A stretch of DNA of 64,000 nucleotides from Klebsiella pneumoniae (GTDB lineage Bacteria > Myxococcota_A > UBA796 > GCA-2862545): contig CAMASI010000004.1 in the NCBI GenBank assembly GCA_945861065.1, positions 1-64,000 of the forward strand, in the 5' to 3' direction. Under the pieces are notes generated by a model. The model was not told the DNA's origin. It did not search any database and saw nothing but the letters and a program-made list of their open reading frames with translations. Positions 13,210 to 59,054 of the stretch are shown in pieces. How positions within the stretch are numbered: position 1 is the first letter of the stretch; every line of letters starts with the position of its first letter. The position numbers and the translations under genes are program-made.

Positions 13210-13775
13210 TTGGCTTTGGAGCGGGCGGAATCCTTGCGCTGTTGTGGAGTGCGTGGGTTGCTGCGTTCACCTTGTGGGGACGAAAGAGGGTCAGCGTTGT
13301 CCTCGGCGCTGTCGGGGCGTCTGCTGGCCTTTCCGTGTTGACGTCTTCCAGTGCGCTGGCAGTTGGCGCGGGCCTCATCGCTCGTTCGGACCCAACGACG
13401 AAGGTGGGGCACGTCGCGGAAATGATCCGATTGGCCTGGACGCCGATGGCCGCGCTCGGGTTCGCCGTTGCGTTGCTCGCCGCGAGTTGGGCTTGGTCTG
13501 AACGGCCAGCGGTCCGGTCGGGTGTTGTCGGCGGCGTTGCGGCCGCCATTTCCGTGGGTGCGGGCGTGCTCGCGTTGATCGCGTTGTTTGCGACATGGGT
13601 GGACCTGCAGACCCTCTCCGTTCGTACGGAGGGCACCCGCTTGGGGGTCGATCTCGCCGTCGTTTTGGTCGTTTGGAGTTGGGCGGCTACCGCGGCAGCT
13701 ATTGTGGCCGGCGCGGTGTCTTGTTGGCCCGTGAAGAAGCCGGTCTCGACCGGCGGACGGCGAACCAACAGCTGA
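13206..13775 (+). CDS. Hypothetical integral membrane protein, 5 TM
   Basis: 189 residues from GTG 13206, overlapping the preceding stop by four bases. Roughly five hydrophobic helices are visible (about residues 4-22, 28-57, 80-97, 106-131 and 147-172), rich in Ala, Gly, Val and Ser. The pattern is loosely like a MotA/TolQ/ExbB channel protein, but the family's signature residues are not recognisable, so this is only a suggestion. The C-terminus overlaps 77 bases of the convergent MopE/MYXO-CTERM gene. Confidence 0.65.
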   Translation: MIGFGAGGILALLWSAWVAAFTLWGRKRVSVVLGAVGASAGLSVLTSSSALAVGAGLIARSDPTTKVGHVAEMIRLAWTPMAALGFAVALLAASWAWSERPAVRSGVVGGVAAAISVGAGVLALIALFATWVDLQTLSVRTEGTRLGVDLAVVLVVWSWAATAAAIVAGAVSCWPVKKPVSTGGRRTNS

Positions 13776-14859
13776 GCACGCCTAGCCACGATCCGGATCC
13801 TGTCGCTGCACATGTGCAGCTGGTCGCAGCCTCCGAGGGGGCGTCGGTGTCCGGGGTCGGGGTGGTGGGTTCGTCGACGCAGTCCTTTTCTGGGTCGGTG
13901 GATCCCGGATTGACATCGGCATGCTGCTCGTCGCAATCGTCGGCGTTGGGGGCCCAACCGACGCCCGGCAAGTCACACGAGACCACGGGCGCCACGGTGC
14001 TCACGTCGGCTGTGCCGTATCCGTCGCCGTCTAAGTCAGGGTACCAGGTGGGGGCTTCTACGGTGTCCGGGTCGTCTACGACGCCGTTGCAGTCGTCGTC
14101 GGTGTCGTTGCACAATTCGGCCGCACCGGGGAACACGTCGGCATCGAAGGGGGCGCAGTCCAGCGTGCGGACGACGCCGTCACCGTCTACGTCGTAGACG
14201 GCTGCCCAGGTCAACGCGTTGACCACCAACTGCCACCCATCGTCGCCTGCGGCGCCGGTCGCAGCCGAGACGGGAGACAGGTTGAGTCCGACCACCAAGC
14301 CGGTATTGCCGGGGCTGAGGTGGGCCGCGAGTGCGTCCCCGTGCGCCCAACTCCCGTCCACCGTTGCAGCGACGGCGGGAATAGTGCTCGTCACGATGGG
14401 GAGGCCCGCGGGGTTGCCCACATCGGAGATGCCGGCCAGGAGCGGGTGTGCGCTATCCACGGACCCGAGGGACAGCGGTCCGTCGTACACCTCGAACGTC
14501 CCGGAAAATGGTGAGTACGCTGCGGGAAAACGACCGCCCAGGCCGGCAACGTCTTGGGCGGCGACGGCTTCGACGACGCTGCCGCCGATGTCCACGTAGT
14601 CGGCGAGCCGTTCTCCGAGCAAGCCGCCATTGTCAAAGGGGGTGCGCGACCACACCAAGATCACGTCCGCTGGTGCCAGCGCGGCAAGGTCAGGCGTCGT
14701 GCCGCCGCAATCGAGGTCGGCGACCCCGACGAATGCGCCCTCAGCGGCAATGGCGTTCACAACGACGTTTGCTGACGAATCGGCAGCGCAAACTGCGACC
14801 GTTTGGGCGCTCGCAGGGGTGGGAACCAGGAGCCCGAGGGCAACGATGGGCGAAAACAT
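13699..14859 (-). CDS. MopE-motif protein with MYXO-CTERM tail
   Basis: 386 residues. Signal peptide MFSPIVALGLLVPTPASAQ, then a domain of about 200 residues with alternating strands and helices (VAVCAADSSANVVVNAI, DVILVWSRTPFDNGGLLG) that looks like a class I glutamine-amidotransferase/ThuA-like fold, then two MopE-type Asp/Cys motifs (PGAAELCNDTDDDCNGVVDD and DADDCDEQHADVNPGS-like), a Thr/Pro linker, and a tail SCTCAATG - hydrophobic - RRSR that fits MYXO-CTERM. It should be exported, processed and anchored at the surface. It is the last gene of the histidine-kinase operon, nine bases after its neighbour, and a distant paralogue of 57255-59054. Confidence 0.75.
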   Translation of the reverse strand: MFSPIVALGLLVPTPASAQTVAVCAADSSANVVVNAIAAEGAFVGVADLDCGGTTPDLAALAPADVILVWSRTPFDNGGLLGERLADYVDIGGSVVEAVAAQDVAGLGGRFPAAYSPFSGTFEVYDGPLSLGSVDSAHPLLAGISDVGNPAGLPIVTSTIPAVAATVDGSWAHGDALAAHLSPGNTGLVVGLNLSPVSAATGAAGDDGWQLVVNALTWAAVYDVDGDGVVRTLDCAPFDADVFPGAAELCNDTDDDCNGVVDDPDTVEAPTWYPDLDGDGYGTADVSTVAPVVSCDLPGVGWAPNADDCDEQHADVNPGSTDPEKDCVDEPTTPTPDTDAPSEAATSCTCAATGSGSWLGVLSCWFAVRRSRPASSRANKTPRRPQ

Positions 14860-14867
14860 CCGGGACC

Positions 14868-16640
14868 TCAGAGCGGCGGGGACTGGGCTTCGATGGGGGC
14901 TCGGTGCAGCGTGACCTCTCGCTCCCCGCCGGGCCCCGCGTAGCGGCGGGTGCCTTCCCAGGGGACGAAGGCAGCGGCGTCGACGGCCGTGGGGTCTAGA
15001 ATGGGGCCCTCTCCGGGCGCTACCCGTACGGCGATATCGGCACCGGCAGTGGCGATTCCCTCGGCCGACAAGAGCGAGGCGCCGGGTCCGCCGATACGCT
15101 GTGCGAGCGCAGGTGAGCGCTCGGCCGGTGGCAGGCGTTCAAGCCAGCGTCGAAGCTCGAGGGCACCAGCGCCGGTCAGCACCCAAGTGATTTCGCTGGG
15201 CGTTTCGACAATGGAACTGGAACCCGTGGCCAGGGGCGAACGCTCAGGCGCGAGGGCCTCGGCGCCGGCGAGTTCGCTGCGCAGTTCGAAGGGCGCGCAA
15301 GAGGGACAACCCGGATCCAGCCAGAGGGCTTGGTCGTCAACGACGACCCGTACAAGGGCGTCGTCATACCCAGCAGGGCTCAACGCGCCTCCGGGCGGCC
15401 GATCCGCCGGTCGGATGAGGACTGCGTTTGTGTCGAAACCAAGTTGCCGTCCCCACAGCGCGACAATCAATGCGCCCTCGATCGGCGTGACGAGGCGCGA
15501 GCGAAGCGCTTTGGAGAGACGTCGCGGAAAGAGCGGATCACCTGGCAGTGTGTGCGCGACCACTGCTCGTTCGTGCAGTGTGGCCACCAAATCGGCTGCC
15601 AGTTCTCGGTTTCGCTCGCGGCCCCTCAAGGTGAAGGGCGCTGCTGGCTCGGGCATGGAAGCGACGAAGAACCGCCAGCCGAGTGCGTCGGAGAGCGCCT
15701 GCCGGTCGGGAAGCACGGGTTCTCCGCGTGCGGAGGTCAGCACCCAGGTCGTTGGACCGTCCCAGGCGACTTCGCCCTCGGGTGCGGACACGTCGAGCGA
15801 TTCGCCGACGGGGCGCTCACCGTGGGTAGGGGCGTCGGGCGACCGATACCGAAGGGCGACGCGTGCTGGCGCTTCTCCGGGGTGCACGTCGACGCGCACG
15901 AGGTCGGGCAACCACTTGACGGTCGCGGCGCCCGCCGGTTCAACTCGAACCTCACCGGGCTCCGTCCCCACGCGGTAGGTTTCCCACCAGGTCGTCAGCT
16001 GCTGCGGGTCCGGGACCAGCCGAAGGTGCAGGTCCGTGCGTGCCGCCGATCCGCCACCAGGGAACAGCACCTCCTGCGGGTCCCCCTCCGGAATCTCCAG
16101 CGTCAGTGCGCGTTGAAGGTCTGCAACGGCTGCGGGCGGCGCGGGAGGGACCGAAGGTTCGGGATTCCCGACTTGCACACTGTCGCCTTCGACGCCGGGA
16201 CCCACCCAGAAATCATCGCCATCCTGTTGCACAGCGCCGGTCCGAAGTGAGCCCGGAGCGCCTCGCAGGCGGGCCCACGTCGCGCCGGCTGGCGCCCAGG
16301 TGAAACCACCCTCCCAACGCCGTGTGAACCGGATGAGCGCCCGGTCGTCGGCCGACAAATCCTCTAGATGCAAGCGCACGATGTGGCCGCCGTGCGGGTC
16401 GGTGGGTCGCGATTGCCAGCGGATGCCCTCGAGCTTCGGATCGGCCGCGTCGACCACGCGAACCCGGCCCCCCGTTTCCACCAACGACGCGTTGGGCGGG
16501 ACGACGATGTCTACGAACAAACAATTGGGATCGGGCCGGAGGTCGAAGCGGACGGATTCCAGCCACCGGTCGCCATCCAAGCGGACCTGGGTGTCGGCAA
16601 GGGTGAGAACGCACCCTACCGCCATGTTCACGCCGTTCAC
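14868..16640 (-). CDS. Large protein with degenerate transglutaminase-like region
   Basis: 590 residues from GTG 16640 (GTGA overlap with the hydrolase gene; an ATG at 16625 is the alternative). The N-terminal half is beta-rich and resembles DUF3857-type domains that precede transglutaminase domains. Around residues 405-470, EGALIVALWGRQLGFDTNAV and DDALVRVVVDDQALWLDPG match the transglutaminase-core layout, but the catalytic Cys and His positions appear replaced by non-catalytic residues, so I infer a non-enzymatic or peptide-binding role. No clear signal peptide is seen, which is odd for this family. Confidence 0.6.
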   Translation of the reverse strand: MNGVNMAVGCVLTLADTQVRLDGDRWLESVRFDLRPDPNCLFVDIVVPPNASLVETGGRVRVVDAADPKLEGIRWQSRPTDPHGGHIVRLHLEDLSADDRALIRFTRRWEGGFTWAPAGATWARLRGAPGSLRTGAVQQDGDDFWVGPGVEGDSVQVGNPEPSVPPAPPAAVADLQRALTLEIPEGDPQEVLFPGGGSAARTDLHLRLVPDPQQLTTWWETYRVGTEPGEVRVEPAGAATVKWLPDLVRVDVHPGEAPARVALRYRSPDAPTHGERPVGESLDVSAPEGEVAWDGPTTWVLTSARGEPVLPDRQALSDALGWRFFVASMPEPAAPFTLRGRERNRELAADLVATLHERAVVAHTLPGDPLFPRRLSKALRSRLVTPIEGALIVALWGRQLGFDTNAVLIRPADRPPGGALSPAGYDDALVRVVVDDQALWLDPGCPSCAPFELRSELAGAEALAPERSPLATGSSSIVETPSEITWVLTGAGALELRRWLERLPPAERSPALAQRIGGPGASLLSAEGIATAGADIAVRVAPGEGPILDPTAVDAAAFVPWEGTRRYAGPGGEREVTLHRAPIEAQSPPL

Positions 16641-17503
16641 GCGGCGTCCAAGAAGGCGCTGATCTCGTCTGCGAGCGCGTCCGGTGCGTCATGATGAACG
16701 AGATGGCCGGCGCCAGCGATTCGGACTGTGCGCTGCACGGGAAGGTGGGACGCGCGTTGGTCGGCATCCGGGAGCACGAAACCGCTATCCGCACCGTCGA
16801 TTCGCAACACGGGTGCCTTCACAGCATCGAGGAAACGTTCGAACAGGGCGGCTTGGAACGGCACGGGTGAGCGCGCCCGATGAAGCACATCCCAAGTCCA
16901 CACAACGCTGCCCTGAGGGCCTTCGTCGGGCAGCGCCGGTCGCGTGGACCGGGTGGCGAGTGCCATTGCAGTCGCCGGTTCAAGCCGAGGATTGACGCGC
17001 CGCATGCGATCCGCAGCCTCTGCGGCCGACAACATCGGTTTGTGCTGAGGGGGGCGTGCCCGTTCGGCGACGAAGTCTCGGGCGCGGGAAAGGGCGCCCT
17101 CCGTGCCGTCAGGCGGACCCAAGCCTTCGACGAGCACCAGCCGCCGAACGGCGTCCGGGCGGGTGGCGGCGAGCAGCAGTGCCACGGTACCGCCCATAGA
17201 GTGTCCGACGACGTCCAGCGGGCCACCTAAGTGGTCGATCAGCGTCGCTGCGTCTCCCACATAGTCCCAGAAGTGGTACCAGCCTCCCCGCCCGACGTGT
17301 TCGGACCGTCCGTGCCCGCGTTGATCGGGTGCGCATACGGCCCTGCCGAGCCGCCTGGCGACTGCGTCCCAGGCCGCACCTTGCTCCAGGTAGCCGTGCA
17401 GAATGAGGACGGGGCGTTCAAGCCCGCCCCAGGTACACAAACAAAGCCGAGGACCGCGAGGAGGTGCGTCGAACCACACCTCGTGCAACACATCCGACGT
17501 CAC
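16637..17503 (-). CDS. Alpha/beta-hydrolase fold enzyme
   Basis: 288 residues from GTG 17503. A classical alpha/beta hydrolase: VLILHGYLEQGAAWDAVA (oxyanion-hole HG), CAPDQRGHGRSE, the nucleophile elbow GHSMGG, a likely acid in LRIDGADSG, and the catalytic His in GAGHLVHHDAPD. The substrate cannot be told; esterase, lactonase or peptidase roles are all possible. No signal peptide, so cytoplasmic. It is coupled by 4-nt overlaps to both the response regulator upstream and the transglutaminase-like gene downstream. Confidence 0.85.
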   Translation of the reverse strand: MTSDVLHEVWFDAPPRGPRLCLCTWGGLERPVLILHGYLEQGAAWDAVARRLGRAVCAPDQRGHGRSEHVGRGGWYHFWDYVGDAATLIDHLGGPLDVVGHSMGGTVALLLAATRPDAVRRLVLVEGLGPPDGTEGALSRARDFVAERARPPQHKPMLSAAEAADRMRRVNPRLEPATAMALATRSTRPALPDEGPQGSVVWTWDVLHRARSPVPFQAALFERFLDAVKAPVLRIDGADSGFVLPDADQRASHLPVQRTVRIAGAGHLVHHDAPDALADEISAFLDAA

Positions 17504-18183
17504 GCCTCGAACCGGTAGCCGGTCCCGTGGACAGTGAGAATATGACGGGGTAGCGCGGGTTCATCCTCGATTTTCTTACGGAGCTTGAGTATCTGGTTGT
17601 CGACGGTTCGGGTGGCCAACGCTGCGGTGTAGCCCCAGACCTCTCGAAGCAGCTCGTCCCGACTTACGTCCCGGCCGCGGTGGGTGATGAGGTACGCCAG
17701 GGTGCCCGCTTCGTGTGTCGTGAGGTGCGACTCTTCTTTGCCCTTGATCAGCACGCGACGCCGCAGGTCTACGGTCACGTCGCCGAAGGCGAAATGGTCG
17801 GGTGTTCGCGGTTCTACGCTGCGCTCTCGGAGGCGCGCGCGAATGCGGGCGATCACTTCTCGAACTGAGAATGGTTTGGTGATGTAGTCGTCGGCTCCCA
17901 TTTCCAGGCCCATGACCCGGTCGATTTCGTGGGTGCGGGCGGTCAGCATGAGCACCGGTATTCCCGGAAACTCTGCTTTGATCGCTCGCATGACTTTCAA
18001 CCCATCCATCCCGGGCAGCGCGATGTCGCACAGAACCAGATCGGGCGTTCGACCGCGGACAGTCTGCAGCGCAGATTCGCCGTCCGGCGCGTGTCGCACC
18101 TGGAATCGTTCGTGTTGCAACGCGGCCACGAGGCCTTGGGCAATTGTCCGATCGTCTTCGACGATCAGGATATCTGCTTCCAC
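17500..18183 (-). CDS. OmpR-family response regulator
   Basis: 227 residues. Receiver domain with ILIVEDDRT (acidic pocket), phosphoacceptor D53 in LVLCDIALPGMDG, T81 and K103 (ITKPFS); then a winged-helix Trans_reg_C domain with LTTHEAGTLAYLITHRGRDV and RTVDNQILKLRKKIE. It should bind DNA when phosphorylated by the sensor kinase at the head of the same operon (21694-23727). Unusually, the two lipoprotein genes lie between kinase and regulator. GTG start immediately adjoining the TAG of the lipoprotein gene. Confidence 0.92.
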   Translation of the reverse strand: MEADILIVEDDRTIAQGLVAALQHERFQVRHAPDGESALQTVRGRTPDLVLCDIALPGMDGLKVMRAIKAEFPGIPVLMLTARTHEIDRVMGLEMGADDYITKPFSVREVIARIRARLRERSVEPRTPDHFAFGDVTVDLRRRVLIKGKEESHLTTHEAGTLAYLITHRGRDVSRDELLREVWGYTAALATRTVDNQILKLRKKIEDEPALPRHILTVHGTGYRFEA

Positions 18184-19950
18184 CTACGGCTCCTTGTCGA
18201 CGGTCAGGATGTACGGCCCGAGCACGTCTTTGGTATCGACGACGAGGAAAAGCGTGGCAGGCGCGCCGGAGAGGTTGGAATATCCGACGGCCTCCGGACC
18301 CGTCGTGGTCGTGTCGGAGCCCACGGCGCAGGATGCGGGATTGACGCAATTGTACATGAGGTAGAGTGCGCCGTCGCCGCCGGTCATGGACAACGTTGCG
18401 GTCAGCGTCTCGCCGTCTGCAATCTCGACTTTGGTGATGCTCTCGGGTCCCGGAACGGAGGTTTGTGTGCAGCCTCCTGCACCCGGATTTATCAATCCCG
18501 TGTAGGGAAACGTTTCTGTGTAATAAGTCCCTTCGGGCATCGCGATTGTTTGGAGTTGGGCGTCCAAACAATCGTCGTACATCTCCGGCTCTTCGAGCGT
18601 GTCGATGGTCAGGTCGAGCTCAAACGTCCGCTCGAGCAGGCTCGCGCCAAGGCCAACGCCCTGGTACCACCCGTCCAGGACCAAATACAAATCCTGGGCC
18701 TCCTCCGTCTGGTTGAAGTAGGTGAGGTATTCGATTCCACCTAGGCTCACGTCTGCGTCGGCGCCCACCAAGCAGGACGCCGCCTTGTCGCAGTCGGTGA
18801 GCAGGTAGATTGCGGGGTCCCCTTCATCGACAGTGTACGACAGACTCATGATGGTGTTGGGTTCGAGGTGAACGGGCACTATGCCCTCTTCGCCACCTTC
18901 CAGGTAGCCCGTGCATCCGCCGTACCCTGGGGACAAGTCGTTCCCGAACCAGTCGCCGAACTTCCCGTAGTACAAGCCACTTTCAGTGATTGGCGGTAGC
19001 AGTTCGGCGGTGGAACACGTGTCCACAATGATGAGCTCCTCTGCATCCCCTACGTAGATGTAGTGGCCAATCAGGACGATCTCGGACACGCTGATTGCGT
19101 CGAGTTCGTGGGGGCCGACAAGGCTTTTTGTGTGGGTCCACCGACTCATCGTGAATTGTACGTCGAGGTCGTCGGTATCAAAACCAAGCGCGCCCACGTC
19201 GAAAGCCTCGTAGCCGTCGTCTTCAAGCCAAAAGAGCTGGGAGATGCCCAAGGCTTCGACGATCAGGTAGATGTCGCCGGTACCGGTAGGGGTCCACTCG
19301 AACAGGAGGTCTTCCCCGTTCACGAAATCCACGTCGAATTTGTAGTCCGGGATGACGAGGTCCAAGTCCTCATCGATCAACACCATGGGGTCGTCGGCAG
19401 GGTCCGCGTCGTCGAGCAGGCCAGACCATTCTCCGGCGATGCTGACCGGGTAAGAACCGTACACGAGCGGATCGTCATCGAGAATTGCGGCGTAGTACGA
19501 ACGGCCGTCGACTTCGTCGAACACGTAGGGCAGAGTGTACGGGCCGATAGTGATTTCGGTTCCCAAGTAGCGAAACGTAGGATTCGCCTGGTCGAACATC
19601 CGACCGTCGTCAAACGATACGGCTTCGCCCTCCTCCGAGGGGAGGACCTGAATGCAGGGGACGGGCGCGATGGCGCACTGCGCGGTGTTGAGGAAACCGG
19701 GATCGTCGTCAAGGAAAACGGCGTAGCCGTAGGCGGCGTTGTCGCGCTCAGGTGACCGACGACGCAGCAGAATGATGCTGCCTTCGTCGGATACGACCTG
19801 AGCCGACGTGCTGTCGTCAGGCCTGCCTGACGTCACGACTACCGTGTCGGAATCGGTCGTATCGGCGGGCGGTACTCCGCTACCTTCGGTCGGACCGCAA
19901 GCAGCAAGGAGGGGGATCAGGATCGCGTTGCGCATGTTCGCTCTGCTCAC
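18184..19950 (-). CDS. Large lipoprotein with PPC-like repeats (paralogue 2)
   Basis: 588 residues from GTG 19950 (GTGA overlap; ATG 19935 is the alternative start). Lipoprotein signal MRNAILIPLLAACGPTEG, followed by a Thr/Ser/Asp linker. The body is very acidic and carries repeated beta-sandwich-like units with the pattern LYLMYNCVNPASCAVG...LFLVVDTK and IYLLTDCDKAASC...LYLVLDG, like pre-peptidase C-terminal (PPC) domains with a conserved Cys pair. It shares order and motifs with its neighbour 19947-21653, so the two arose by tandem duplication. Both lie between the kinase and its regulator, suggesting a sensory or surface role linked to that signalling pair. Confidence 0.75.
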   Translation of the reverse strand: MSRANMRNAILIPLLAACGPTEGSGVPPADTTDSDTVVVTSGRPDDSTSAQVVSDEGSIILLRRRSPERDNAAYGYAVFLDDDPGFLNTAQCAIAPVPCIQVLPSEEGEAVSFDDGRMFDQANPTFRYLGTEITIGPYTLPYVFDEVDGRSYYAAILDDDPLVYGSYPVSIAGEWSGLLDDADPADDPMVLIDEDLDLVIPDYKFDVDFVNGEDLLFEWTPTGTGDIYLIVEALGISQLFWLEDDGYEAFDVGALGFDTDDLDVQFTMSRWTHTKSLVGPHELDAISVSEIVLIGHYIYVGDAEELIIVDTCSTAELLPPITESGLYYGKFGDWFGNDLSPGYGGCTGYLEGGEEGIVPVHLEPNTIMSLSYTVDEGDPAIYLLTDCDKAASCLVGADADVSLGGIEYLTYFNQTEEAQDLYLVLDGWYQGVGLGASLLERTFELDLTIDTLEEPEMYDDCLDAQLQTIAMPEGTYYTETFPYTGLINPGAGGCTQTSVPGPESITKVEIADGETLTATLSMTGGDGALYLMYNCVNPASCAVGSDTTTTGPEAVGYSNLSGAPATLFLVVDTKDVLGPYILTVDKEP

Positions 19951-21653
19951 TGGTATGCGATGTCGAGGTTGTATCCGGCTGACGCGCCCTTGCTGTCCAC
20001 GACGAGGTACAGGTTTTCCTGGACGCCAGATTCATTGGCGTACGTGACTACCTCGGCAGCATCGGTCGCCAGGTCGGCGCCGACCACGCAAGAAGCGGGG
20101 ACGGCGCAGTTGTACATCAGGTATAGAACGAGGTCGGAGTCGGGCATCGAGGCCGTGGCGGTCAACGTTTCCCCGGCTTCGAGTCGAATCTTGACGAACC
20201 CGTCACCACCCGGCGCGGGTGCAGCGCAGGTGCCGTCGGGGTTGAGGTCGCTCACAGCGAGGGACAGATCGCCGGCAAAGCCGCCCGCCGCGACTGGGTC
20301 GGCCAGCATGGCGTCGGCACACGAATCGTGCAGCACATTGCCACCGACGACGTCCAGCGTGACGTCCAATACAAAGATGTCGGTGATTGAAGCGACCTCT
20401 GGGTACAAATAGCTGTCCAGCACGAGGTAGATCAGCACCTCTTCGTCGTCTGGATTGAACCAGGTCACAGCTTCTTCCCAACCTTGGTAGCCACCGTCGG
20501 CTCCGACGATGCACGTTCCCGGATTTGCGCACGCTGTCTCTAGGTACAACGATGCGTCATCGTTAGGAAGTTGGTACGTGACTGTGATCAACCCACCGGC
20601 CGGGACCAGCATGGGAAGGATGCCCTCGGCCCCCTGAGCGGGAAAACCCGTGCAGCCGTCGAGGCCGGGGTTGATCTGATCCCCGAATGCACGCATGTCG
20701 CCCCAATACGACCCGGGGCCGATGGGGGTGACAGCGGGTACGTCGGTGCAGGTATCCGCAGGAAACACTTCTGTACGGCCGTCGAGCTCCTTGTAGGACC
20801 CGTAAATCCATTGGTCGGATTGGCCGTTGAATTGAACCGTGTGCCCGTCGTCGGTGATGAGGGTTTCGGTATTCCAACGACCGATCATCAGATCGATTGT
20901 TTCGCCGTCGTCGATTCCGAAGTCGCTCAGGTCGAGCGTGTACTGGCCGTCATCCGCGAGCAGGTACAGGCGATCGGCAACCCAAGTGGAGACCGCGAGC
21001 ACGACGATTCCGCTTCCCGATGGCTCCCAAACGAATTCAATCGGCGCCTGATCCGTGAAGGCGTGAAAAACCAGCGGATCGGGCGACGTGACGACCATCG
21101 GGACCGGCAACGTCAGCGCACTAGGCGATGAGAAACTCTCCCAGTCTGAGCCTTCCCACGCCAGGTCGAGCGGACCGCCTGCGAGCAGCGGGTCTACGGC
21201 GGCGTAGTAGCTGCCGAGTTCGGCGGCGGCGTCGAAGAACCACGGTGCGGACCAGGGTCCCAACGTGAGCGTATCGCCGACATACCGCGTAAACAGCTGA
21301 TCGAGGATTTCGTCGTCGTAGTCGTCGACGCCGACCCACGTGTCTTCCGCGGTGGGCAGCGTTTGCGCGCAAAACGTCTCAGACTGCGATTGCGCCAGGC
21401 ACATCGGTAGGTTGATCCATCCGCGCAACGAGTCGGCGAAGACGGCTACCAACGTGGTGTCGGCCGGGAGGTTCCCGGCTCGGCGACTTCGCTGAATCAG
21501 GGCGACGTGGCCCTCTTCGGGCGTTGGGAAGAACGTTGAGTCCGTGTCCGTGTCGGTGGCGTAGGTCGGCTCGAACGGATTTGTCCCTTCGGTTTGATTT
21601 CCAGCACCAAGCGGGGTGCACCCGGCCAAACCAACGGCCCACAGCCCGCGCAC
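19947..21653 (-). CDS. Large lipoprotein with PPC-like repeats (paralogue 1)
   Basis: 568 residues from GTG 21653. The N-terminus MRGLWAVGLAGCTPLGAG has a lipobox-like LAGC and a TDTDTDS linker. The body parallels the downstream paralogue: the same opening (GHVALIQRSRR compared with GSIILLRRRSP), a central TDDGxTVxF-like region, and three PPC-like units ending in YLETACANPGTCIVG, LYLMYNCAVPASCVVG and LYLVVDSKG. The repeated NPxSCxVG Cys-containing loop is a distinctive shared mark. Function unknown; the position directly after the kinase gene (40-base gap) suggests it informs or responds to that kinase. Confidence 0.75.
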   Translation of the reverse strand: MRGLWAVGLAGCTPLGAGNQTEGTNPFEPTYATDTDTDSTFFPTPEEGHVALIQRSRRAGNLPADTTLVAVFADSLRGWINLPMCLAQSQSETFCAQTLPTAEDTWVGVDDYDDEILDQLFTRYVGDTLTLGPWSAPWFFDAAAELGSYYAAVDPLLAGGPLDLAWEGSDWESFSSPSALTLPVPMVVTSPDPLVFHAFTDQAPIEFVWEPSGSGIVVLAVSTWVADRLYLLADDGQYTLDLSDFGIDDGETIDLMIGRWNTETLITDDGHTVQFNGQSDQWIYGSYKELDGRTEVFPADTCTDVPAVTPIGPGSYWGDMRAFGDQINPGLDGCTGFPAQGAEGILPMLVPAGGLITVTYQLPNDDASLYLETACANPGTCIVGADGGYQGWEEAVTWFNPDDEEVLIYLVLDSYLYPEVASITDIFVLDVTLDVVGGNVLHDSCADAMLADPVAAGGFAGDLSLAVSDLNPDGTCAAPAPGGDGFVKIRLEAGETLTATASMPDSDLVLYLMYNCAVPASCVVGADLATDAAEVVTYANESGVQENLYLVVDSKGASAGYNLDIAYQ

Positions 21654-21693
21654 GGCGCCTCCCGACCGTTGCTAACGTCACCTTGCCGCGAAT

Positions 21694-23727
21694 TCACGCC
21701 TTTGTGGTGGCCACGGGTAGGCGAATCTCGAAGGACGAACCGCCGTCTACCCCGGCAAGACAGGCCACCTTGCCGTGGTGCACCCGAACGATGGCCGCGA
21801 CCTGCGCGAGTCCTAGGCCATAGCCGCCCGCATGACCGCGACCGTCGCCCTCTACTCTCACATACGGTTCGAAAATCGCAGCCCTGAGCTCAGACGGTAC
21901 GCCCAACCCGTTGTCGGCGACGGTGATGACGACCACGTCGCGTTCTTGCCTCAAGGACAACCAAACGGTGGCGTCGATTCGGTCCTCTCGACGGTATTTC
22001 AGGGCATTGTCGAGCAGGCAGGAAACGGCGTCTCGGACAGCGGCCCCGTCGCCCATCACCGCATCCGTAGAATCCAGTTCTTCTGCGATGAGGCGGACGC
22101 CAGTGGCTTCAAGCCTAGGGCCCCATTCGTCTACGGCTTCCAACACCATCTCCTCCGGATCAAACGGCTGTGGGTTGGGAATCGTGGCTGCTCGTGCCAC
22201 CGACAAGATCTCGTCGACTCGCCGGGTCAATCGGTCCACTTCACGGACGATTCCGTGCGCCATATCGGCATGTTGTGCTTCGTTTTGGAAGGCGCCCATT
22301 TCCAAGTTCTCGGCCATGACGCGGATACCGGCAAGCGGCGTCTTGAGCTCGTGGGTGACGCGGGTACTGAATTCGCGTTGACGCCGAAGGAGCGCGCGTT
22401 CCTGGCCGCCAGCCCTCGCTTGAGCGGCGAGCGCGATGACCCCGAGAACGAATGTGAGCAGTACGATGACGAATGGGACAATCCACCCCTCAGAGGCGCT
22501 GGCGATTTCGTCGTCCACTGCGCCCCTTCGGATTCCGAGACGCAGCCATCGTAGGGTGCGAGGAAGGCCGACGTCGACGATGACTGGGCCGCCGCGTCGT
22601 GCCCCCGCGACGATGTCGCCTCCGCCTTCCCGCACGACGAGGTGACTGCGCACTGAGGAAAGTTCGGGTCGGGCCAGCAACGTGTCGAGCAGGGCGGCGG
22701 GTTCGACCTGGATGGCGCCGCCTGTGCCGTCGGCATGCCACGTCGTGTACAAGGCAAACGGGTCAGCGCTGTACTGGTCCCAGGAGAATCTGGGCAAGGG
22801 GCTCGCATCTAACGATGGGGGGTCGGTCAGCACGCGCGCAGTGATCTCTCGCCACGCCGCTACGCGGCGTTCACAGGCTGCGAGGGCGATTTCTACCAGT
22901 TGTGCCGCGTCAGGGTCACTGTTTCGCCGAAGTCTGGGCAACATCGGCCAGCGGAGCAGATGCCCTAGAGCGGCAGCGTCTGGCGCGTCTAAGGAGGCGA
23001 TTTCGGTGGCGTTTCGAGCCCAACCCTGGTCTGCTTCCATGGTTCGCCCCAAGCGGTCGAGCAGACTGTTGCGCTGGTTTCGCACCAACGCGAGTCGGGC
23101 GGGTGGTACGCCGAGGGCGGCGGCGGATGCGAGCGACGGGCCGCCCGGCGGGTCGACGATCTCTAAGGTAACCAATGCCATTTCGGTGAATCCCGCTTGG
23201 TCGAGCATCGACGCCGCCTCGCTGGCCGCGTACAGCCGCACGGAAGGCGTGTCATTGGCGCAACCCGCGATCCACAAGCGGGCGAGTTCAGCGGGTTCCA
23301 GGTCAGTTCGCGTGAGGGCCTTGGCCGCGAGGACGCAGGGCCTGCGGGCCAGGGAATCGGGGCGGTCTACGGAGGTCTCCGTAGGAAACACGAGACGGTA
23401 GCCGTCACGTCCTCGGGGTCCGCGGTCGGGTGCCCACAAGTAGAGGGCGGCGATGAACGGGCGGCGCCGGAGGCGTTCTTGTCTCTGCGCAGCACGCTCC
23501 ACTTCAACTGGACCGTCCAGGCCCGCGTCGAGTTCTTCGATAAGTCGGTCTTCCCACAGGGCGACGGCGCCAGTCACGCGGCGCTCCAAGCTTTCCACGA
23601 CCCGGTCGTTGATCGAGCGACGCAGTTCGTTCACCCGGAACAACGCGAGCACCGTCATCAACAGGTAGAGGCCGCTGGCGACCCAGGGGAGCAGCCGTCG
23701 GAAGAGCGGCAGCGGGGTTTCGAACAT
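21694..23727 (-). CDS. Membrane sensor histidine kinase
   Basis: 677 residues. Membrane helices at about 11-31 and 413-436 enclose a periplasmic sensor region of about 380 residues without a recognised domain. The cytoplasmic half is a standard kinase: H-box STRVTHELKTPLAG with H459, N-box LLDNALKY (N574), G1 box ADNGLGVP (D605) and G2 box GGYGLGLA. It begins a seven-gene operon with two lipoproteins, an OmpR-type regulator and three further genes. It is divergent from an FG-GAP lipoprotein gene 53 bases away, which could be a target of the pair. Confidence 0.92.
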   Translation of the reverse strand: MFETPLPLFRRLLPWVASGLYLLMTVLALFRVNELRRSINDRVVESLERRVTGAVALWEDRLIEELDAGLDGPVEVERAAQRQERLRRRPFIAALYLWAPDRGPRGRDGYRLVFPTETSVDRPDSLARRPCVLAAKALTRTDLEPAELARLWIAGCANDTPSVRLYAASEAASMLDQAGFTEMALVTLEIVDPPGGPSLASAAALGVPPARLALVRNQRNSLLDRLGRTMEADQGWARNATEIASLDAPDAAALGHLLRWPMLPRLRRNSDPDAAQLVEIALAACERRVAAWREITARVLTDPPSLDASPLPRFSWDQYSADPFALYTTWHADGTGGAIQVEPAALLDTLLARPELSSVRSHLVVREGGGDIVAGARRGGPVIVDVGLPRTLRWLRLGIRRGAVDDEIASASEGWIVPFVIVLLTFVLGVIALAAQARAGGQERALLRRQREFSTRVTHELKTPLAGIRVMAENLEMGAFQNEAQHADMAHGIVREVDRLTRRVDEILSVARAATIPNPQPFDPEEMVLEAVDEWGPRLEATGVRLIAEELDSTDAVMGDGAAVRDAVSCLLDNALKYRREDRIDATVWLSLRQERDVVVITVADNGLGVPSELRAAIFEPYVRVEGDGRGHAGGYGLGLAQVAAIVRVHHGKVACLAGVDGGSSFEIRLPVATTKA

Positions 23728-23780
23728 GTCCTTGACTAGAGCGCGGGTCCGGGTCAGTCAACGCCGCGCATGAGGGACCG

Positions 23781-25115
23781 ATGACGAAAAGGTTTGGAAC
23801 TGGTGGGCCTATTGGCCTTGTTGTGCTCGCGGCGGGACTTTGGGCCTGTTCCGGTACGGAACCCGAGGCAGGTTCCGCCAGCGAGGCGGCCTCGGTCGCA
23901 GCGCCAGAACCGGTGCCGGCCGCGCTTGGCGGCCGCCCACCTGGAGAATTGCCGGGAATCCTCATGTCGCAGGCCCAGTTCAAGACGGGCGACGACGGCA
24001 AGCCGAGGCCAGGTCCGGCAAAGCTCGTATTGTGGCGCACGGACGGAAAAACCTGGTGGAGCGATGTGGTCGAGGACGTGGGTGCTAACGTGTTCCACAA
24101 GACCATCGATTGGCGCGACGGTTTGTTGTCGATTTCGGCAGGTCAGCTTCCGGTCGAGGGTTCGCCCGTCCCACCAGCGCAGCTGAAACATTGGACCTGG
24201 GATGGCACGGCGTGGCAAGGGCGTGTGTTGTGGGAAAAAGCGTGGAGCGGAAAATTCCAGCGGATGCGCGACATGGAATTGGGTGATCTGGACGGGGATG
24301 GTAAGGACGAGGTCGCGATCGCCACGCACGATAGCGGGGTTGTCGCCGTTGTTCACGAAGGAGCCGATGGCACGTTCAAGGCGATGGAAATGGACGAGGC
24401 GGTGGATACTTTCGTCCACGAAATCGAAATCGGTGACGTCGATCACGATGGGAAAAAAGAGTTCTACTGTACGCCCTCGGCTCGAAACAAAGCGAGCGGC
24501 GTGTCTCAGCCGGGTGCCGTGGCTCGCTACGATTACGTAGCCGGAGCCTACGTCCGGAGTTGGGTCGTTCAGTGGGAGGAGAGCCATGCGAAAGAGATTC
24601 TGGTTGCCGACGTAGACGGAGACGGCAAGGATGAATTGTATGTCGTGCGCGAAGGCCACGTCGAAAAATCCGGGAAAGCGAAAGGCCCCAAGACAATTCT
24701 GAAGGACCCGGTGCATATCCTTCGCATGGAGTGGACAGGCAAGGCCTACAAAGAGGTGAGCGTAGCGTCGTTGCCGGATGAGAAGCAGACTCGTTTTCTG
24801 CTGGCAGGTGACGTCAACCATGACGGCAAAACAGACCTCGTGGCCGCGGCGATGGACACCGGTCTGTGGTTGCTCACGCGAAACGACGACGGGTCGTTCA
24901 CGCCAACGGTCATCGACCAAGCGTCGGGGGGGTTTGAACACGCTACGGATATTGCCGACCTGGACGGCGACGGAAAGGTCGAGATTTATGTGGCCGCGGA
25001 CAAACAACGCGAGTTCCGTCGTTACTTGTGGAATGGAACTTCGTTCGACAAGACGGTGATTGCGCCGATCCCCGAACGCCACATCACGTGGAATCTTCAA
25101 CACGGGAAATTCTGA
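23781..25115 (+). CDS. FG-GAP/VCBS repeat lipoprotein
   Basis: 444 residues. Lipoprotein signal with lipobox in GLVVLAAGLWACSGTEPEAG, an Ala/Glu/Pro linker, then at least five FG-GAP blades, each with a DxDxDGxx(D/E) loop: DLDGDGKDEVAIATHD, DVDHDGKKEFYC, DVDGDGKDELYVV, DVNHDGKTDLVAAAMD, DLDGDGKVEIYVAAD. A calcium-stabilised propeller displayed on the outer membrane is likely. Divergent from the histidine-kinase operon across a very short intergenic region, so co-regulation is possible. Confidence 0.85.
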   Translation: MTKRFGTGGPIGLVVLAAGLWACSGTEPEAGSASEAASVAAPEPVPAALGGRPPGELPGILMSQAQFKTGDDGKPRPGPAKLVLWRTDGKTWWSDVVEDVGANVFHKTIDWRDGLLSISAGQLPVEGSPVPPAQLKHWTWDGTAWQGRVLWEKAWSGKFQRMRDMELGDLDGDGKDEVAIATHDSGVVAVVHEGADGTFKAMEMDEAVDTFVHEIEIGDVDHDGKKEFYCTPSARNKASGVSQPGAVARYDYVAGAYVRSWVVQWEESHAKEILVADVDGDGKDELYVVREGHVEKSGKAKGPKTILKDPVHILRMEWTGKAYKEVSVASLPDEKQTRFLLAGDVNHDGKTDLVAAAMDTGLWLLTRNDDGSFTPTVIDQASGGFEHATDIADLDGDGKVEIYVAADKQREFRRYLWNGTSFDKTVIAPIPERHITWNLQHGKF

Positions 25116-57254: not shown

Positions 57255-59054
57255 ATGACGTTTAGTCTCGGCGTGCTGGCGGCCTCCATCGCTCAGGCCC
57301 AGGTTGTAGCGGCCCTGGGCGCGGACTTCGGTTCGTACCGAACCGACGTCGTGGACGCTTTGGTGGCGTCAGGTGAATTCGATTCCGTCGTGGAAATCGA
57401 CCTCGTCGCCACGGTGCCGACGGACGCTGACCTCGACGGCTTCGACGCGGTCCTTGTGTGGTCGGATCTGCAGATTCAAGACAGCGAAACGGTGGGGGAC
57501 CGACTAGCCGATGCCGTCGATGAAGGCATGGGGCTGGTGGTCGCGGTGTTTGGTTCAGCGTCGGGTCTTGAAATTCGAGGTCGACTCAAGAGCGGTGGTT
57601 ACAACGCAATCCTAGTGGATAGTGTGCCATTATTTGGCAGTTCCTCGGCTTGGATGGTTCCGTTAGATGCCGGGCATCCTATTCTGGACGGCGTCGTCGA
57701 TTTTTATGGGGGAAATGACAGCATCCGAACGGACGCTCCGGAAATCGCGCCGGGCGCCAACCGGGTGGCCGACTGGAGTGACGGGGACGTGTTGGTGTCG
57801 GAACATGTGCCTTCTGGCGCCGGTCGCGTCGTAGGATTGAATTTGTTTCCTCCGTCGTCCAGAGCCGCTCCGGATTTGTGGGACGCCTCGACCGACGGGG
57901 CGGTATTGATCGCCAATGCGCTCGCATTTGCGGCGTGGCCTGACGCCGACGGGGACGGCTGGTTGCGCTCCTCCGGTGACTGCGATGACCACAATCCACT
58001 CGTGTACCCACTCGCGGAGGATTATTGTAACGGGCTCGACGACAACTGCGACGGGGTTTTGTTGGTCGACGACGTCGATGCCGACCACGACGGGTGGGCG
58101 GTCTGTGCAGGCGATTGCGCTGATTTTGAGCCGCTGAGGTTCCCAGGCGCTGTCGAGCTGTGCGACGGGCTGGACAATGATTGCGATGTCAGCACGGTCG
58201 AAGACGCGGATGCAGACGGCGACGAACAGGGGTGGTGTGCTGGGGACTGCGACGATGCCGACGCCAGCGTGTTCTTAGGGGCGCCCGAGTTGTGTGACGG
58301 ACGAGACAACGATTGCGATCCGTTGACCGACGAAGAATCCGATGACGACGGCGACGGTGTGCGGTTGTGCGACGACCGCTGTGAGGGTGGGGACGATGGG
58401 AACGACCCCGACGAGGACGGCGTACCGACCCACTGTGATCCATGTCCGATGGATGCGCTCGACGATTCCGATGGGGACACGGTATGCGACAGTGACGACC
58501 GTTGCCCAGGCGTAGACGACGCACTCGACGCAGACGGGGACGGCGCTCCCGAGTCGTGCGACGTTTGCCCGGGCGTGCGCGACCCCGATCAGACCGACGT
58601 CGATGGCGATGGGTGGGGCGCGGCCTGCGACTGCCATGATCTCGCCTCGGAGGTGTTTCCAGGCGCCGTCGAGGTGTGCGACGGCCTCGACAACGATTGT
58701 GACGGGCTGGTGGACCCCGACGGGGCGGACGGCGGCGTGCTCGTGTACGCTGACGTAGACGGGGACGGGGCCGGAGATCCGGGCTCAGCGTATATGGCCT
58801 GTGAGGTGTCGATCGGCAGTTCTGCCGTTGGTACCGATTGCAATGACCTCGATGCGTTTGTGCGTCCCGGTGCCGTCGAACGATGCGATGGTGTCGACCA
58901 GAACTGTGACAGGCAAGTTGATGAGGGTTGTACGGACCCGCAGGAACCGGCGAGCTGCGGTTGCGCCGCGTCGCCAGGACCCGGCTCACTCGTCGTGCCG
59001 TGGCTGATTCTCAGTGCATCGATGTGGCGACGACGCGGAACACGATTGCGGTGA
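57255..59054 (+). CDS. MopE-repeat protein with MYXO-CTERM tail
   Basis: 599 residues, ATG 57255 preceded by GAGG. Signal peptide MTFSLGVLAASIAQAQ, a domain of about 210 residues like a glutamine-amidotransferase/ThuA fold (DGFDAVLVWSDLQIQDSETV), then six or more MopE/thrombospondin-3-type Asp/Cys motifs (DYCNGLDDNCDGVL, VELCDGLDNDCDVS, DRCPGVDDALDADGDG, VEVCDGLDNDCDGL, VERCDGVDQNCDRQVDEGC), and a tail SCGCAASPGPGSLVVPW...MWRRRGTRLR matching MYXO-CTERM. The repeats bind Ca2+ or, in MopE, copper. A longer paralogue of 13699-14859. Its end overlaps the convergent ABC/CPBP gene by 44 bases. Confidence 0.82.
   Translation: MTFSLGVLAASIAQAQVVAALGADFGSYRTDVVDALVASGEFDSVVEIDLVATVPTDADLDGFDAVLVWSDLQIQDSETVGDRLADAVDEGMGLVVAVFGSASGLEIRGRLKSGGYNAILVDSVPLFGSSSAWMVPLDAGHPILDGVVDFYGGNDSIRTDAPEIAPGANRVADWSDGDVLVSEHVPSGAGRVVGLNLFPPSSRAAPDLWDASTDGAVLIANALAFAAWPDADGDGWLRSSGDCDDHNPLVYPLAEDYCNGLDDNCDGVLLVDDVDADHDGWAVCAGDCADFEPLRFPGAVELCDGLDNDCDVSTVEDADADGDEQGWCAGDCDDADASVFLGAPELCDGRDNDCDPLTDEESDDDGDGVRLCDDRCEGGDDGNDPDEDGVPTHCDPCPMDALDDSDGDTVCDSDDRCPGVDDALDADGDGAPESCDVCPGVRDPDQTDVDGDGWGAACDCHDLASEVFPGAVEVCDGLDNDCDGLVDPDGADGGVLVYADVDGDGAGDPGSAYMACEVSIGSSAVGTDCNDLDAFVRPGAVERCDGVDQNCDRQVDEGCTDPQEPASCGCAASPGPGSLVVPWLILSASMWRRRGTRLR

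What the first reader, a model, noticed from the sequence alone, without database searches (positions are those of the whole stretch)
14868..23727. Two-component operon with a pair of PPC-like lipoproteins between kinase and regulator
The order is histidine kinase, two large paralogous lipoproteins, OmpR regulator, alpha/beta hydrolase and an inactive-looking transglutaminase-type protein, joined by 4-nt overlaps. Lipoproteins placed between kinase and regulator suggest that they are part of the sensing device, perhaps binding ligand at the surface and signalling to the 380-residue periplasmic domain of the kinase. I know of no described system with this composition.
Basis: partly seen in the sequence, partly recalled or inferred. 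Interest (0 to 1): 0.65.

Follow-up and report, generated by a model that had tools for sequence, protein, structure and literature searches.

The report
Core two-component system with added lipoproteins
An ancient, single-copy bacterial envelope-sensing switch found throughout one uncultured order has, in the lineage of this genome, gained a pair of large outer-membrane-type lipoproteins between its sensor and its regulator, probably as accessory parts that tune the sensor, as other lipoproteins do in a few known systems.

Summary
The operon is real and conserved: kinase (HK), lipoproteins LP1 and LP2, regulator (RR), hydrolase (ABH) and a ~590-aa unknown protein (TGL). Junction details need correcting: three 4-nt overlaps, one abutment and a 40-nt gap. 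The same order recurs in the sister species and another genus and, split by contig ends, in others, so the finding's own refuter fails. The stable part is HK+RR. The kinase has a novel periplasmic domain (TPR-like helices plus a beta part; AlphaFold pLDDT 91), is single-copy in 55 of 63 genomes of its order and absent from 8 class relatives. LP1/LP2 are a later insertion: kinases of lipoprotein-bearing genomes form one clade (support 99/98), LP1 and LP2 are separate ortholog groups, and in one genus they stayed with the kinase when the regulator moved away. Another family places the same HK-RR behind a RodA-PBP/PP2C/FHA cell-wall cluster, suggesting an envelope-homeostasis switch. A divergent FG-GAP lipoprotein is a more constant partner than LP1/LP2. 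Best reading: a three-component arrangement like MtrAB-LpqB, CseABC or SaePQRS, with unrelated lipoproteins tuning a core kinase. Ligand binding and signalling to the kinase are plausible but undemonstrated; regulated output is nearly as likely. New variant of a known kind.

The parts
21694..23727 (-). Sensor histidine kinase: TM1, ~380-aa periplasmic domain (TPR-like helical block plus beta part), TM2, HisKA, HATPase_c
   Evidence: Pfam HisKA and HATPase_c; found in 55/63 genomes of the order, nearly always single copy; AlphaFold of residues 34-412 pLDDT 91.5, pTM 0.86; W98, P115, C131, C156, R288, D317 invariant in 37 aligned kinases
19947..21653 (-). LP1, lipoprotein (lipobox LAGC, C12), all-beta multidomain, two C-terminal PPC-fold-like domains
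   Evidence: AlphaFold pLDDT 82.3, pTM 0.64; Foldseek best match ColG s3as3b; ortholog group LP1
18184..19950 (-). LP2, paralogous lipoprotein (lipobox LAAC), 4-nt overlap with LP1
   Evidence: LP2 ortholog group support 99/98
17500..18183 (-). OmpR/PhoB-type response regulator (D53 phosphoacceptor)
   Evidence: Pfam Response_reg and Trans_reg_C; one strong match per genome, 65-81% identity in the family
16637..17503 (-). Alpha/beta hydrolase (GHSMGG nucleophile motif)
   Evidence: Pfam Abhydrolase_1 E 9e-25; follows the RR also in family f2
14868..16640 (-).
   Evidence: No Pfam, NCBIfam or clear PDB match; conserved with ABH and a HEAT-type (DNA_alkylation) gene in relatives
23781..25115 (+). 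Divergent FG-GAP beta-propeller lipoprotein, constant neighbour of the kinase in this family
   Evidence: Pfam FG-GAP_3 E 1e-22; found near the kinase in all 16 other family loci whose upstream side is assembled
23732..23761 (.). Palindrome TTGACT-N18-AGTCAA between the divergent starts, candidate promoter/regulator element
   Evidence: only occurrence in this genome and in its congener, at the same place in both
13699..14859 (-). Secreted protein with MopE-type motif, 8 nt downstream, probable last gene of the unit; not at this place in the congener
   Evidence: Pfam Cu-binding_MopE E 4e-6; gap; congener L032

Best explanation
This is a core, single-copy envelope-sensing two-component system of one uncultured bacterial order, to which a pair of lipoproteins was added once in the ancestor of a subgroup of genera. 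Shown: the kinase has a periplasmic domain predicted with high confidence to hold a TPR-like helical block and a beta part next to the membrane; HK and RR have all catalytic residues; the lipoproteins sit in the kinase's gene cluster, on the same strand with overlapping or near-overlapping ends. Inferred: the TPR-like block is a docking surface for an extracytoplasmic protein; LP1/LP2, anchored in the envelope, dock directly or through the FG-GAP lipoprotein and raise or lower kinase versus phosphatase activity, as LpqB, CseA and SaePQ are reported to do for MtrB, CseC and SaeS; the RR then adjusts envelope or cell-wall genes and its own operon.
For: Gene order conserved. Lipoprotein-bearing genomes are one clade, 99/98. 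LP1 and LP2 are distinct ortholog groups kept in place. In genus g5 the LPs stay with the HK while the RR lies on another contig, in G007 with ABH-HEAT-TGL. Kinase sensor in 55/63 genomes of the order, 0/8 outside. Sensor model high confidence, with weak TPR and CqsR (Cache) resemblances. HK-RR directly follows a RodA-PBP fusion/PP2C/FhaA_N/kinase-like cluster in family f4, 11 of 12 loci having at least the kinase-like gene. Lipoprotein-tuned TCSs are documented: LpqB-MtrB (PMC3353115), CseA-CseC and AfsQ3 (PMC9739842), SaePQ-SaeS (PMC5083920).
Against: The kinase is kept without LP1/LP2 in most of the order, so they cannot be essential to its core sensing. The LP domain family also occurs in proteins far from any kinase. 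No interaction, ligand or expression data exist. The two structure jobs were single chains, so no complex was modelled. One clade gives one evolutionary event, so the coupling to the kinase is not statistically replicated. LP1 is missing in genus g4 (L036).
Confidence: 0.45

Rival explanations
1. LP1/LP2 are outputs, not inputs: surface lipoproteins (adhesion or glycan binding) whose expression is controlled by the RR through an autoregulated operon, placed inside it for co-expression.
For: All genes share one unit; LP1 is an all-beta multidomain protein whose best PDB matches include collagen-binding domains and Bacteroides surface glycan-binding proteins; homologues occur away from kinases; a unique conserved palindrome lies at the shared promoter region.
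Against: When HK and RR genes separate in genus g5 the LPs follow the kinase, not the regulator. Position next to the kinase is kept through deep divergence. Neither excludes it.
Confidence: 0.35
2. Lineage-specific hitchhiking: the LP pair landed between HK and RR by chance and is merely transcribed with them; the sensing partner is another protein such as the divergent FG-GAP lipoprotein.
For: FG-GAP lipoprotein is near the kinase in every family locus whose upstream side could be read, with or without LPs; one insertion event explains the whole LP distribution.
Against: No loss of the whole LP pair in eight genomes whose kinases and LPs are strongly diverged (about 35-50% identity); maintained as two ortholog groups.
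Confidence: 0.15
3. A special form of the best explanation: LP1/LP2 replaced an older periplasmic partner, a HEAT-like secreted protein (HKup) encoded upstream of the kinase, which is absent from every LP-bearing genome.
For: HKup is found in 14/63 genomes of the order, mostly directly upstream of the kinase, and in 0 of 8 LP-bearing genomes.
Against: Several genomes have neither (G001, G002, G003, G011, G012), so HKup loss does not need LP gain; LP gain is a single event.
Confidence: 0.2

Closest known systems
MtrAB-LpqB of Actinobacteria (PMC3353115)
   Same: OmpR-type RR and a kinase of an envelope/cell-wall TCS with a lipoprotein gene next to the kinase; LpqB is reported to bind the extracellular domain of MtrB and change MtrA phosphorylation. 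The RR here scores highest against MtrA among NCBIfam models. In family f4 the HK-RR sits by a RodA-PBP/PP2C/FhaA_N cluster.
   Different: RR scores below the MtrA cut-off (207.6 vs 300), HK far below MtrB (74.2 vs 450); no LpqB profile match in LP1/LP2; two paralogous PPC-fold-like lipoproteins between HK and RR instead of one after HK; order HK-RR instead of RR-HK.
SigE-CseABC of Streptomyces (PMC9739842)
   Same: Lipoprotein encoded in the operon of a cell-envelope TCS and thought to modulate the kinase sensor domain.
   Different: Single lipoprotein, a sigma factor in the operon; no sequence relation found here.
SaePQRS of Staphylococcus (PMC5083920)
   Same: Lipoprotein SaeP with partner SaeQ tunes the kinase from inside the same operon.
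   Different: SaeS has only a short extracytoplasmic linker; SaeQ is a membrane protein; Gram-positive.
FimS of Porphyromonas (PMC11053733)
   Same: Histidine kinase with TPR motifs in a ~340-aa periplasmic sensor domain.
   Different: Here the TPR-like block is joined to a beta part and only one relative reaches a Pfam TPR model; relation by sequence was not tested.

Membership tests
HisKA/HATPase_c - OmpR/PhoB two-component system | HK with phosphoacceptor His, N and G boxes; RR with phosphoacceptor Asp and winged-helix output | tested here: met
   Pfam matches above cut-off; catalytic residues present
MtrAB-LpqB | RR reaches MtrA equivalog cut-off; lipoprotein matches LpqB | tested here: not met
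   MtrA 207.6 vs cut-off 300; MtrB 74.2 vs 450; no NCBIfam or Pfam LpqB match for LP1/LP2
WalKR (YycFG) | RR/HK reach WalR/WalK cut-offs | tested here: not met
   YycF 198.2 vs 340; WalK 100.1 vs 725
Lipoprotein-modulated TCS (three-component type) | Lipoprotein encoded in the TCS operon | tested here: met
   conserved in relatives
Lipoprotein-modulated TCS (three-component type) | Lipoprotein binds the extracytoplasmic domain and changes RR phosphorylation | not testable with these tools
   Needs biochemistry or complex modelling
Pfam PPC (PF04151) domain | Profile match | tested here: not met
   No match for window LP1/LP2; best E 0.024 in 1 of 11 relatives
Pfam PPC (PF04151) domain | PPC/collagen-binding jelly-roll fold | tested here: inconclusive
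   ColG s3as3b is the top PDB match at E 1e-10 but TM-scores are low (0.18/0.39); that ColG CBDs are of the PPC fold is my knowledge
Transglutaminase-like | Profile match or catalytic Cys-His-Asp | tested here: not met
   No Pfam match in 10 members, no transglutaminase among PDB matches; only the DP of a W-x-DP motif is recognisable by eye, with a conserved CxxC behind it
Cache/PDC sensor domain | Significant fold match to Cache domains | tested here: inconclusive
   CqsR matches at E 0.05 only, TPR proteins at similar E

The most novel reading that the evidence does not exclude
The order-wide kinase is a cell-wall checkpoint whose TPR-bearing periplasmic domain reads out exchangeable protein partners: a HEAT-like periplasmic protein in some lineages, the LP1/LP2 pair in this one, with the FG-GAP propeller lipoprotein as constant partner across the family. 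The LP pair would be a swapped-in sensing module on an otherwise fixed switch.
Probability: 0.2. Interest if true: 0.65.

Novelty: new variant of a known kind. Interest (0 to 1): 0.42.

Why it matters
It gives an uncultured order a candidate core envelope regulator with a sensor domain not in Pfam, and a phylogenetically placed example of accessory lipoproteins being added to an existing two-component system. If the lipoproteins do tune the kinase, it shows how a conserved sensor acquires lineage-specific inputs; the close parallels I found are from Gram-positive systems.

Tried and rejected
Chance assembly: rejected by conserved order and trees. PPC by profile: not supported. Transglutaminase by profile: not supported. 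Membership of MtrA/WalR families by NCBIfam cut-off: not met. Relation of the MopE-type lipoproteins next to the RR in family f4 to LP1/LP2: profile comparison aligned only the signal peptides. RR regulon by the promoter palindrome: it occurs only once per genome, so no regulon came out. Sigma-70 promoter scan of the region: none found; terminator-like hits (9) close to the shuffle mean (6.1). First locus search with LP1 and the sensor alignment gave nothing; the H-box-to-N-box alignment worked. The name DTSAM18 (a relative's record) has no paper in the library. The FGE-sulfatase/AAA protein in L044 was first labelled TGL-like by me and is unrelated.

Full report
WHAT IS THERE. The window is part of a 4.4-Mb, 147-contig genome. 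Relatives found by name are deposited mostly as uncultured 'Deltaproteobacteria', 'Proteobacteria' or 'Myxococcales' genomes. Junctions: HK-LP1 +40 nt, LP1-LP2 -4, LP2-RR 0, RR-ABH -4, ABH-TGL -4; a MopE-motif secreted protein follows after 8 nt. HK and RR carry their catalytic residues. LP1 and LP2 have lipoboxes without Asp at +2 (T, G), which by the E. coli sorting rule (my knowledge, not tested for this phylum) would mean the outer membrane.

THE STABLE CORE IS HK AND RR. The kinase periplasmic domain was searched through whole genomes. It occurs in 19 of 21 genomes of the family, in 55 of 63 genomes of the order, nearly always as a single copy, and in none of 8 other genomes of the class. 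The RR has one strong match per genome at 65-81% identity, far better conserved than the sensor (26-46%). HK and RR are adjacent in all 20 loci read from the other families of the order. So the pair is an old core system of the order.

THE SENSOR DOMAIN. No Pfam family matches it in the window protein; one of 19 relatives reaches a TPR model at E 3e-5. AlphaFold with 19 sequences gives pLDDT 91.5 and pTM 0.86: a long N-terminal helix, two strands, a block of helices between about residues 90 and 266 of the model, then a beta part with two helices that leads into TM2. Foldseek finds no match below E 0.001; the best are TPR and designed helical proteins and, weakly, the ligand-binding domain of CqsR. 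I read it as a Cache-like scaffold with a TPR-like insertion, which is inference. W98, P115, C131, C156, R288 and D317 are invariant in 37 kinases across the order; the two cysteines could form a disulfide.

THE LIPOPROTEINS ARE A LATER ADDITION. LP1/LP2 relatives next to the kinase or the RR occur only in eight genomes of this family. HK-LP1-LP2-RR-ABH-HEAT-TGL is complete in the congener (L032) and in another genus (L034). In G009, HK-LP1 and RR-ABH-HEAT-TGL lie on two contigs, and the RR contig ends with a piece of an LP gene (L033, L120). Genus g4 has a single LP of LP2 type (L036, L050). Genus g5 has HK-LP1-LP2, one genome with further copies, and the RR elsewhere (L039, L042, L121, L122). 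The kinases of the seven LP genomes in which a kinase is assembled form one clade with support 99/98; LP1 and LP2 fall into two ortholog groups. This means one insertion of an already duplicated pair, or insertion and early duplication, then retention. When the operon split in genus g5 the LP genes stayed with the kinase.

LP STRUCTURE. The model of mature LP1 (pLDDT 82, pTM 0.64) is all beta. Its best PDB match is the tandem collagen-binding domain pair of ColG, followed by glycan-binding and other beta-sandwich proteins, with low TM-scores. LP domains also occur in larger proteins elsewhere in these genomes.

OTHER PARTNERS. A divergent FG-GAP propeller lipoprotein lies near the kinase in the window and in all 16 other family loci whose upstream side is assembled (in G020 a few kb away), with a GreA/GreB-type factor close by in 14 of them, with or without LP1/LP2. 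It is the more constant extracytoplasmic neighbour. A secreted HEAT-like protein (HKup) sits upstream of the kinase in several LP-less genomes and in families f5 and f6, and is absent from all eight LP genomes. In family f4, HK-RR directly follows genes for a FhaA_N protein, a PP2C phosphatase, a FtsW/RodA-PBP fusion and a kinase-like protein (11 of 12 loci have at least the last one), and a MopE-type lipoprotein unrelated to LP1/LP2 often follows the RR. That cluster resembles the actinobacterial fhaA-pstP-rodA-pbpA-pknAB cluster (my knowledge) and points to cell-wall control.

PROMOTER REGION. Between the divergent starts lies TTGACT-N18-AGTCAA at 23732-23761. It occurs once in this genome and once in the congener, at the same place. 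It may be a pair of promoter elements or an RR site; two genomes cannot tell.

MECHANISM. Most likely the lipoproteins tune the kinase. Documented parallels are LpqB with MtrB (PMC3353115), CseA with CseC and possibly AfsQ3 (PMC9739842) and SaePQ with SaeS (PMC5083920); a TPR-type periplasmic sensor is known in FimS (PMC11053733). The chain from LP to kinase is inferred; output and passenger roles remain open. Because the kinase is kept without LPs in most of the order, the LPs cannot be the primary sensor.

VERDICT. Observation confirmed with corrections; interpretation partly supported; a new variant of the known lipoprotein-plus-two-component kind, with an order-specific sensor domain as the more interesting part. 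The confidences of the explanations overlap, because the HKup-replacement reading is a special form of the best explanation.

Noticed in passing
window 23781-25115 (+); L032-L049: FG-GAP propeller lipoprotein, with a GreA/GreB-type factor close by in most loci, is a constant neighbour of this kinase in the family.
   Followed up: partly
L054-L059, L061, L063, L064, L066, L071: In family f4 the same HK-RR follows a FhaA_N / PP2C / RodA-PBP fusion / kinase-like cluster; the RodA and PBP parts are fused in one ~1060-aa protein (shown by Pfam for L057).
   Followed up: partly
L044:10774-11661, L060:4898-5905 and others: HKup, a secreted HEAT-like protein upstream of the kinase, present in 14/63 genomes of the order and in none of the LP-bearing ones.
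   Followed up: partly
window 21694-23727, residue C656: A cysteine in the cytoplasmic ATPase domain (C656) is invariant in 37 of 37 kinases, besides the invariant periplasmic C131 and C156.
   Followed up: no
window 23732-23761: Palindrome TTGACT-N18-AGTCAA, unique in two genomes of the genus, directly before the kinase start.
   Followed up: partly
window 13699-14859 (-): Secreted MopE-motif protein at the end of the operon; a homologue lies at 57255-59054.
   Followed up: no
L034:5059-5799 and relatives: A DNA_alkylation-type HEAT gene (PF08713) lies between ABH and TGL in relatives but is missing in the window.
   Followed up: no
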